This document shows, one piece after another, positions 13,966 to 15,658 of a DNA stretch of 64,000 nucleotides. The stretch is from Thermomicrobium sp. 4228-Ro (GTDB lineage: Bacteria > Chloroflexota > Chloroflexia > Thermomicrobiales > Thermomicrobiaceae), in the NCBI RefSeq assembly GCF_026241205.1, contig NZ_JAPFQM010000001.1, positions 1,302,001 through 1,366,000 of the forward strand, written 5' to 3'. How positions within the stretch are numbered: position 1 is the first letter of the stretch; the number at the start of each line of letters is the position of its first letter. The notes under the pieces are model-generated. The model searched no databases. It had not been told where the DNA came from and was given only the letters and a program-made list of their open reading frames with translations. A program made the position numbers and the translations under genes.

Positions 13966-14102
13966 CGGTCTGCTCCCCACGCCGCAACCGACCTGCGCGG
14001 GCATTCTACCGCGACGGGCCGCTGCTGCCACGGGGATGCCACTGGTAAATTCGCAGCGCTGCGATCGCACCCCGGAGCGGTACGAGTAGCGCGCTCGACC
14101 TC

Positions 14103-14942
14103 GTGCACGGGGCGATTCCCTCACGAACCGGCTTCATGAACTCTCCCACTGGTGACCAGCTGGGAACGTCTCGCTCCGGAGAGTATTCGACGGCGCAGCA
14201 CGCCCGGCGATCGAGCGATGAGGAGCGGTCTTCCCTCACGTCTGGTGGTGCGCGCATCGATCCATCTGCTTGTACAAGACCTTTTTCGCTATACTCGAAG
14301 TGTATCGGTTCGCTGGAAGCGAGGTGCAGGACGAAGCGATCCGCGCTTCGTGTTCTGTTCTCCGTTGCGGTGCTCGTCGTGACATTCGCTTCTGCCCCGG
14401 GGGTAGTTGCGCAGGATGGAGTCGCCGAGTCACCCGAAGTCTGGGGCCTCGTGCAGAGACTCGCAGTACAGCCGGATCCAGCAGAAGCGTTTGCACAGCT
14501 TGATCCAGAGGAACAAAAGCGCGTAGCCGACTATTTGACCACTGGAACCCTCGTCGTGACGCCGATTTTTGGGAAAACCAATTATACTGTAACTGGCGAA
14601 CGCTGCGTCACACGGGGGACATCGGCGGTTTTCTACGTGGCGAATGGTGCAGCCTGGACGTACACGCTGATGATCCAGGCGTGCGATAATGGTGTCCGGA
14701 TTACCCGGTGGAACACGTGGCGCACGGTCGATGTCGCCTGGTGGGCTGTTGGGTGCAGGTTCGTCGGGGATTTCCAGCAGCTTTCGTTCCTGGGCCCGAA
14801 TGCTACCTCTGTGTATGCCTATCGTCAGGGACACTTTCAGTGGTGTATGGGATCCTTTGTCTGTTTCAGTGAACGGTATCCATGGGCCTGGTATCGCATC
14901 TACGCGAATGGATCGTGGCAGTATGGTTGGGGAGGCACGTGA
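14103..14942 (+). CDS. Secreted Trp/Cys-rich protein of unknown function
   Basis: No family I can name. A signal peptide is clear (basic RTKRSALR, hydrophobic core, cut after GVVAQ near residue 104 of the full frame). The mature part (about 175 aa) has a short helical region (PDPAEAFAQLDPEEQKRVADYL) and then a beta-rich domain with five cysteines and many Trp/Tyr, ending WYRIYANGSWQYGWGG. The arrangement C-x-NG-x-RIT ... GHF-x2-C ... YPW recalls an unnamed secreted domain I associate with actinobacteria; this is from memory. The start is uncertain: GTG 14103 and ATG 14136 give a long non-signal leader, and a TATACT (14290-14295) lies inside it. A CTG at 14313 would give a textbook signal peptide. 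The stretch is visibly less GC-rich than its surroundings. Confidence 0.6.
   Translation: MHGAIPSRTGFMNSPTGDQLGTSRSGEYSTAQHARRSSDEERSSLTSGGARIDPSACTRPFSLYSKCIGSLEARCRTKRSALRVLFSVAVLVVTFASAPGVVAQDGVAESPEVWGLVQRLAVQPDPAEAFAQLDPEEQKRVADYLTTGTLVVTPIFGKTNYTVTGERCVTRGTSAVFYVANGAAWTYTLMIQACDNGVRITRWNTWRTVDVAWWAVGCRFVGDFQQLSFLGPNATSVYAYRQGHFQWCMGSFVCFSERYPWAWYRIYANGSWQYGWGGT
14290..14295 (+). promoter_or_regulatory. Candidate -10 box (TATACT) for the secreted orphan gene
   Basis: TATACT lies 18 bases before the CTG that would start the signal peptide. A TTGTAC is present upstream, but its spacing of 14 bases is short, so the -35 is doubtful. If real, the mRNA starts near 14302 and the ATG/GTG starts further upstream cannot be used. 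Confidence 0.3.
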
Positions 14943-15003
14943 GCGAAGGAGTTAGAGGAAGATTCGGCAGGGAGAGTCCGGCGCGATTCGTGTCGCCAAG
15001 AAC

Positions 15004-15135
15004 ATGATCGTTCTACTCGTGCTCATTCTCCTCGCGCTGGTCACATTTTGGTCGTTATTTGGGTCCCTGCTGTTTCTGGCAAATGTTGTTTTTGGGCATG
15101 GTGGTGGTAGGGCGTTCATCGTAGAGCCCGGGTGA
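15004..15135 (+). CDS. Possible 43-residue hydrophobic membrane peptide
   Basis: The short frame begins MIVLLVLILLALVTFW and stays hydrophobic for about 30 residues, then ends with a glycine-rich tail (GHGGGRAF). It would form a single membrane helix. It lies 61 bases after the stop of the secreted orphan protein and on the same strand, in the same less GC-rich patch. No good ribosome-binding site stands right before the ATG (GGGAGAG is some 25 bases away), so it may be chance. Nothing is known of its function. Confidence 0.35.
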   Translation: MIVLLVLILLALVTFWSLFGSLLFLANVVFGHGGGRAFIVEPG

Positions 15136-15483
15136 ATGCTCCTGCGGCGACACGCGTTTGGAAGGGTACTCGGAGGCAGCGTACCCTTTGCGGTGCAGCA
15201 ACGCGTTCGACCGCTGATCCCGCGAGAGACGCGTCACGCAGCTTCGCGGTCTTGGGCTGTGCTTCTGATGTGGGCTTCTGTGGGGAGAGTGCATAGATTT
15301 TGTTCGCATCGGTCATCCGGAATAGGCTGGATCTGAATCCTAGCAGGGTCTTCCGCTTTCTCCACAGGCGTTCTCGCAGTATTCCTCATGAAAGCGGAGT
15401 CACGGATACTGTCAGGCCGCCGGCCAGGGGGCTCAGGCCCCCGCTGCAGGCCAGGTTGGTCTGGGGCGGTGCCTCGCGGGGCC
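15136..15483 (+). other. Non-coding gap with a GC hairpin
   Basis: About 350 bases in which I see no credible gene or tRNA. One feature stands out: a hairpin GGGGGC-TCAG-GCCCCC at 15427-15442, 42 bases before the TATAAT of the next operon. It has no T-tract, so it is at best a weak terminator for the upstream orphan transcript. Confidence 0.4.
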
Positions 15484-15489
15484 TATAAT
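15484..15489 (+). promoter_or_regulatory. Perfect -10 box (TATAAT) of the yceD-rpmF-fab operon
   Basis: TATAAT stands in very GC-rich surroundings upstream of the ribosomal-protein/fatty-acid cluster. No convincing -35 is found at 16-18 bases (TTGGTC at 15456 is 22 bases away). If used, it leaves a leader of about 165 bases before the first gene. Confidence 0.5.
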
Positions 15490-15658
15490 CGGACGGTGAG
15501 GCTGTACATGGCTGGCGTCTGCCGGTCGGGAACGGTGTCCAGTGTCGTGAATGCGTGTGTGCAGAGCAATGGTTTCGCGGTCGATTGCCGCTCCCTGCAC
15601 CGGCGGTTACACTTAGGCGGTTGTGCGTCCCCCCAGGACGCCACCGGAGGGCGATCCC

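What the first reader, a model, noticed from the sequence alone, without database searches (positions are those of the whole stretch)
14103..14942. Secreted Trp/Cys-rich orphan in a less GC-rich patch
A signal peptide plus a compact domain with five cysteines and about ten tryptophans, on DNA poorer in GC than its surroundings and with no recognised family. Its start codon is unclear (TATACT within the leader, CTG at the best place). This looks like an acquired or fast-changing exported factor.
Basis: partly seen in the sequence, partly recalled or inferred. Interest (0 to 1): 0.55.

Follow-up and report, generated by a model that had tools for sequence, protein, structure and literature searches.

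The report
Secreted protein with small membrane partner
A short inserted stretch of a bacterial chromosome encodes a secreted, cysteine- and tryptophan-rich protein next to a tiny membrane protein; in related bacteria this pair is exchanged and broken in the way bacterial toxins and their antidotes often are, but no activity has been shown.

Summary
The domain has five cysteines and ten tryptophans and lies in the GC minimum of the window. The listed ORF start is wrong: the only well-placed start is an ACG at 14331, behind a GAGGTG ribosome site and giving a good signal peptide, so translation of this copy is doubtful. It is not an orphan. It belongs to an unnamed Chloroflexota family without a Pfam or NCBIfam match (3 of 7 genomes of the genus, 10 of 400 sampled in the phylum). 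A small transmembrane ORF follows in 14 of 18 members against 4 of 99 control genes; three genomes have the domain fused to membrane hairpins. The window copy sits in a 1.59-kb insertion; four congeners have a 42-47 bp gap there. At one megaplasmid locus the mature domain and the N-terminal part of its partner were replaced as one block between conserved flanks. Nine secreted copies are broken or lack a normal start, each beside an open membrane ORF. Best reading: a mobile, fast-changing secreted antagonist with membrane immunity (0.45). Main rival: a membrane-anchored extracytoplasmic complex, which the fused forms favour.

The parts
14018..15604 (.). Inserted stretch (~1.59 kb) between an aldolase-like gene and a DUF177-like gene; exact ends uncertain by a few bases
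   Evidence: Homology to G001, G003, G005, G006 stops at 14013-14017 and resumes at 15604-15605, with only 42-47 bp between in those genomes; the HR27 contig shares 15381 onward at 88.7% and ends there. The two flanking gene names are by eye, from no family search
14290..14295 (+). TATACT, possible promoter -10 element
   Evidence: Sequence; the consensus scan did not list it as a promoter
14321..14326 (+). GAGGTG, ribosome-binding site candidate
   Evidence: Four bases ahead of the ACG
14331..14333 (+). ACG, most likely start codon or a mutated ATG
   Evidence: Only near-cognate in-frame codon at the right distance; gives (M)KRSALRVLFSVAVLVVTFASAPGVVAQ
14331..14414 (+). Signal peptide (28 codons, to VVAQ)
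   Evidence: By inspection; no signal-peptide program was available
14415..14540 (+). Helical pro-region (three helices; PAEAFAQLDPEEQKRVADYL)
   Evidence: AlphaFold model residues 1-42; similar segment in several relatives
14541..14942 (+). All-beta Cys/Trp domain, with stop codon
   Evidence: Nine strands; whole model mean pLDDT 75.9, pTM 0.61; conserved C..C-x-NG-x-x-x-T..QG-x-F-x-x-C..C..YPW
15004..15135 (+). Small transmembrane partner ORF, 43 aa, with stop codon
   Evidence: 19-residue hydropathy maximum 2.9; 40-43% identical over the aligned part to partners at another locus of this genome and in G005; no NCBIfam match

Best explanation
The locus is one copy of a mobile two-gene cassette. 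Gene 1 encodes a protein exported by a signal peptide, with a helical pro-region and a disulfide-capable, tryptophan-rich all-beta domain. Gene 2 encodes a small integral membrane protein. I propose that gene 1 is an antagonist released against close relatives, acting at the cell surface or membrane, and that gene 2 protects the producer by binding the domain at the membrane. Shown here by sequence: export signal, gene pairing, insertion polymorphism, block replacement of domain plus partner at one locus, frequent breakage of gene 1 beside an open gene 2. Inferred: toxicity, immunity, target, disulfides. In this window the start codon reads ACG, so this copy is probably weakly expressed or silenced.
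For: (1) Small transmembrane ORF directly downstream in 14 of 18 members against 4 of 99 control genes; 11 of 15 when copies of the same locus are counted once. (2) Empty site in four congeners. (3) Megaplasmid locus, G000 against HR27: codons 1-50 have pS 0.05-0.13, then divergence is saturated (pS mostly 0.6-0.9) through the mature domain into partner codon ~16, after which the sequence is alike again. With G005 as third sequence, sites favouring G000+HR27 against HR27+G005 are 264:57 in the flanks and 58:153 in the block. (4) Patchy distribution: 3 of 7, 5 of 21, 7 of 158 and 10 of 400 genomes. (5) Nine broken or start-less gene-1 copies, all with an open gene 2. (6) In G077 the pair lies beside a second secreted ORF and further small membrane ORFs, one of them a 60% identical second copy of the partner without its own gene 1. 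(7) One member (L082) adjoins a serine-recombinase-like gene.
Against: Five members have no adjacent small membrane ORF: L019, L029, L031, L037 and L083. In G248, G269 and G410 domain and membrane hairpins are fused in one chain, which is unusual for a released toxin and its antidote. The excess of broken gene 1 is not significant by length alone (P about 0.11), and some of those genomes are draft bins. Partner searches in 21 genomes found partners only beside gene-1 copies or remnants, no stand-alone immunity gene. Block replacement was seen at one locus only, and the G000 block is itself a pseudogene. No fold match reaches significance. No transporter or modification gene was recognised among the few neighbours scanned.
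Confidence: 0.45

Rival explanations
1. A membrane-anchored extracytoplasmic complex: the Cys/Trp domain is held at the cell surface by the small membrane protein and serves in sensing, adhesion or ligand binding, not in killing.
For: Fused forms in G248, G269, G410 read domain - two-helix hairpin with an RRxxxRG loop - domain - hairpin, and 378-405 aa ORFs carry further hairpins; the charge of the loop would place the domains outside (inference). Two-gene partners of L025 and L082 have the same two-helix layout with an arginine-rich loop. Gene pairing fits equally.
Against: Does not by itself explain the insertion polymorphism, the block swap and the many broken copies.
Confidence: 0.32
2. 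A lineage-specific secreted factor of another kind (for example an inhibitor or binding protein) that merely evolves fast; the membrane ORF is an expression or export helper.
For: Five members without partner; no family name.
Against: 14 of 18 pairing and fusion to membrane hairpins argue for a physical link.
Confidence: 0.13
3. The window copy is simply a decaying relic without function, whatever the family does (not exclusive of the other readings).
For: ACG start; two paralogues in the same genome are pseudogenes; low third-position GC.
Against: 203 codons without a stop, all four family cysteines and the YPW motif kept; partner open.
Confidence: 0.4

Closest known systems
Secreted bacteriocin/polymorphic toxin plus adjacent immunity gene (general kind; polymorphic toxins: PMC3482391, of which I saw the start of the abstract and passages)
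   Same: Export signal, adjacent small gene, patchy presence, block replacement of effector domain with its neighbour
   Different: No toxin or immunity family recognised; fused domain-membrane forms; no activity known; small single-domain protein, not a large multi-domain polymorphic toxin
Zea (Lmo2686, PDB 4K15; PMC6907008, passages read)
   Same: Small secreted protein with beta-sheet structure; best VIA-align row, Z 7.2 over 91 residues at 3.3 A
   Different: 1% identity; Z below the level that means more than a common arrangement; no sequence relation
Staphylococcal leukocidin/gamma-hemolysin beta-sandwich
   Same: Weak arrangement match, Z 4.5-5.6 over 106-113 residues
   Different: 4-6% identity, target longer; Foldseek gives nothing below 1e-3
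LlsX family (NCBIfam NF033904)
   Same: Weak score of the HR27 partner, a small membrane protein, E 0.0026
   Different: 17.9 bits against a cut-off of 29; likely shared hydrophobicity

Membership tests
Any curated Pfam-A family (secreted domain) | Score above the curated cut-off | tested here: not met
   Window protein and relatives have only weak rows far below cut-off; 15 members of A8 scanned one by one, none above cut-off
Any NCBIfam family (secreted domain) | Score above the curated cut-off | tested here: not met
   None for the window; among relatives only L013's signal region, 17.5 bits against 31, and chance rows
PADLOC anti-phage defence proteins | Profile match | tested here: not met
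   0 of 15 members at E up to 0.1
Secreted toxin plus immunity pair (kind) | Export signal on the effector | tested here: met
   Signal-peptide-like N-termini by eye in the window (from ACG), L004, L013, L015, L018, L024; no signal-peptide program run
Secreted toxin plus immunity pair (kind) | Conserved adjacent partner gene | tested here: met
   14 of 18 against 4 of 99; 5 members lack it
Secreted toxin plus immunity pair (kind) | Effector and partner exchanged together | tested here: met
   One locus, three genomes
Secreted toxin plus immunity pair (kind) | Immunity gene outlives the toxin gene | tested here: inconclusive
   9 broken gene-1 copies with open partner but P about 0.11; partner copy without gene 1 in G077; none stand-alone in 21 genomes
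Secreted toxin plus immunity pair (kind) | Toxicity and protection | not testable with these tools
   Needs bench work
Zea (4K15) fold | Same fold | tested here: inconclusive
   Z 7.2, 91 aligned, rmsd 3.3; model of moderate confidence
Leukocidin beta-sandwich | Same fold | tested here: inconclusive
   Z up to 5.6
LlsX family (partner) | Score above 29 bits | tested here: not met
   17.9 bits for the HR27 partner; window partner no match
Lactococcin 972-type bacteriocins (recalled) | Profile match | tested here: not met
   Not among Pfam/NCBIfam matches of the members scanned; the family name and its presence in the libraries are recalled

The most novel reading that the evidence does not exclude
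An undescribed Chloroflexota family of secreted antagonists whose disulfide/tryptophan beta-domain and membrane immunity protein recombine as one exchangeable module between a conserved leader and a conserved partner tail, and which some lineages have turned into fused, tandem membrane proteins.
Probability: 0.38. Interest if true: 0.66.

Novelty: new variant of a known kind. Interest (0 to 1): 0.5.

Why it matters
If right, it gives a small, testable two-gene antagonism system in a phylum where few are known to me, with natural allele swaps that predict which pairs should match. It also shows that a Cys/Trp ORF dismissed as an orphan has a family and a probable physical partner (fusion evidence). 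The ACG start is a direct test of whether a non-AUG codon is used or a gene has just been switched off.

Tried and rejected
Named families: Pfam, NCBIfam and PADLOC gave nothing above cut-off. PDB by sequence: chance-level rows only. Phage, plasmid and viral collections: no match; plasmids and viral contigs were asked with two queries each, phages with one. Rfam on the stretch: none. Exact direct or inverted repeats of 8-12 bases shared by the two ends of the insertion: none found. Fold search: nothing significant; a second model (HR27 protein first) was poor, pLDDT 55. Neutral decay as the cause of divergence at the megaplasmid locus was rejected because flanks and the first 50 codons are nearly identical. 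Homologues in other phyla could not be tested: the one genome-contig scan found 3 loci, all in genomes already seen. Papers: searches for Thermomicrobium with bacteriocin, Chloroflexi with secreted toxin, immunity protein and bacteriocin and Thermomicrobia with toxin and immunity protein listed nothing on this family in title or start of abstract; I read only those listings, and passages of PMC6907008 and PMC3482391. A search on initiation from all codons was read as a listing only.

Full report
What is there. The frame 14103-14942 is open, but its first 228 bases are a mechanical extension. In frame, the only near-cognate start at a proper distance from a ribosome site is ACG at 14331, four bases behind GAGGTG (14321-14326); CTG 14313 lies before that site, and GTG 14370 and 14379 lie inside the hydrophobic core. 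Read from the ACG, the protein is (M)KRSALRVLFSVAVLVVTFASAPGVVAQ followed by 175 residues. Whether ACG is used is not known; it may be a mutated ATG. The protein has 5 Cys and 11 Trp. AlphaFold, on four sequences, gives three helices and then nine strands, mean pLDDT 75.9, pTM 0.61; a model of the HR27 homologue was poor. No fold match is convincing.

Composition. The gene has 57.4% GC against 65.9% for the window, and the gene-sized windows as poor as this all lie here. Third-position GC is 0.616 against 0.776-0.804 in five neighbouring genes. By eye the same holds for the members in L069, L070, L071 and L073 against their coding-looking neighbours, but not for L044.

Insertion. In G001, G003, G005 and G006 the aldolase-like and DUF177-like genes that flank the locus are 42-47 bp apart; here they are 1.59 kb apart. 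HR27, the closest genome, shares the right-hand 224 bp of the stretch before its contig ends. The simplest history is a gain in the ancestor of this genome and HR27. No shared end repeats were found. The genus is Thermomicrobium-like by inference: HR27 lies in the same genus and Thermalbibacter longus in the same family, identified by matching contigs.

Family. Two degraded paralogues lie on contig 6 of the same genome (L002 with two in-frame stops, L003/L016 with a frame break between duplicated pieces). Matches were found in 3 of 7 genomes of the genus, 5 of 21 of the family, 7 of 158 of the class with the HR27 protein as query, 10 of 400 sampled in the phylum with a profile and 4 of 177 in the class of G225; each count includes the centre genome. 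Conserved are four cysteines, the C-x-NG stretch with its T, QG-x-F-x-x-C and YPW; distant members lose some of these. No Pfam, NCBIfam or PADLOC model matches above cut-off.

Partner. A small ORF with a strong transmembrane segment starts within 110 bases of the end of the secreted gene in 14 of 18 members, against 4 of 99 ordinary genes from the window and nine loci (members were not removed from the control). Counting copies of one locus once, it is 11 of 15. Not in that count: L082, L084 and L036 have one, L083 does not. Members without: L019, L029, L031, L037, L083. In the window it is 15004-15135, 43 aa, 40-43% identical over the aligned part to the partners at another locus. In G248, G269 and G410 domain and two-helix membrane hairpins are fused and repeated in 561-606 aa ORFs; that is the best evidence for a physical link.

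Block replacement. At the megaplasmid-like locus (contig 6, 743 kb), G000 and HR27 agree at about 85-90% in the flanks and almost fully over the first 50 codons (pS 0.05-0.13). From there through the mature domain, the spacer and the first ~16 codons of the partner they are saturated (pS mostly 0.6-0.9, pN up to 0.6), after which the partner tail and downstream DNA agree again. G005 at the same locus shares HR27's version: site patterns G000+HR27 against HR27+G005 are 264:57 in the flanks and 58:153 in the block (sites are not independent, so the P-value there is only a guide). The G000 block carries the two stops.

Breakage. The secreted gene is broken or lacks a normal start in nine loci: the window (ACG), L002, L003/L016, L005, L006, L007, L008, L036, L084; in all nine the membrane ORF is open. 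With one lesion per locus, length alone would give this with P about 0.11, so it is suggestive only. L030 is short at its 5' end and was left unclassified. The partners themselves do not look strongly constrained (L004 against L005: pS 0.31, pN 0.19). Partner searches over 21 genomes found partners only beside gene-1 copies. In G077 a second copy of the partner (60% identity) sits among further small membrane ORFs and a second, unrelated secreted ORF.

Reading. Pairing, mobility, co-replacement and loss fit a secreted antagonist with membrane immunity (0.45). Fused forms and partner-less members fit an anchored extracytoplasmic complex or another role better (0.32). The window copy itself may be silent (0.4, not exclusive). 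Killing, protection, target and disulfides are inferred, not shown.

Noticed in passing
L071:6904-9069 (G077): A second secreted ORF (229 aa, with YELFWWGVRIFL and a hydrophobic C-terminal part) followed by three related small membrane ORFs and a copy of the partner; no Pfam or NCBIfam match above cut-off for the secreted ORF. Looks like another secreted/membrane cassette.
   Followed up: partly
L045:3489-4634 and the syntenic part of L067: Coiled-coil-like protein with repeats of RMERVEAQIEALTQ directly upstream of the megaplasmid cassette; many overlapping repeat matches between genomes suggest changing copy number.
   Followed up: no
L082:258-1145 (-): Serine-recombinase-like gene (Pfam Recombinase, E 2.5e-11) directly downstream of an intact cassette.
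   Followed up: partly
L029:2240-2809 (+): ECF sigma factor gene shortly downstream of a family member that lacks the conserved domain cysteines.
   Followed up: no
window 15136-15604: About 450 bases of the inserted stretch without a recognisable gene or RNA family.
   Followed up: partly
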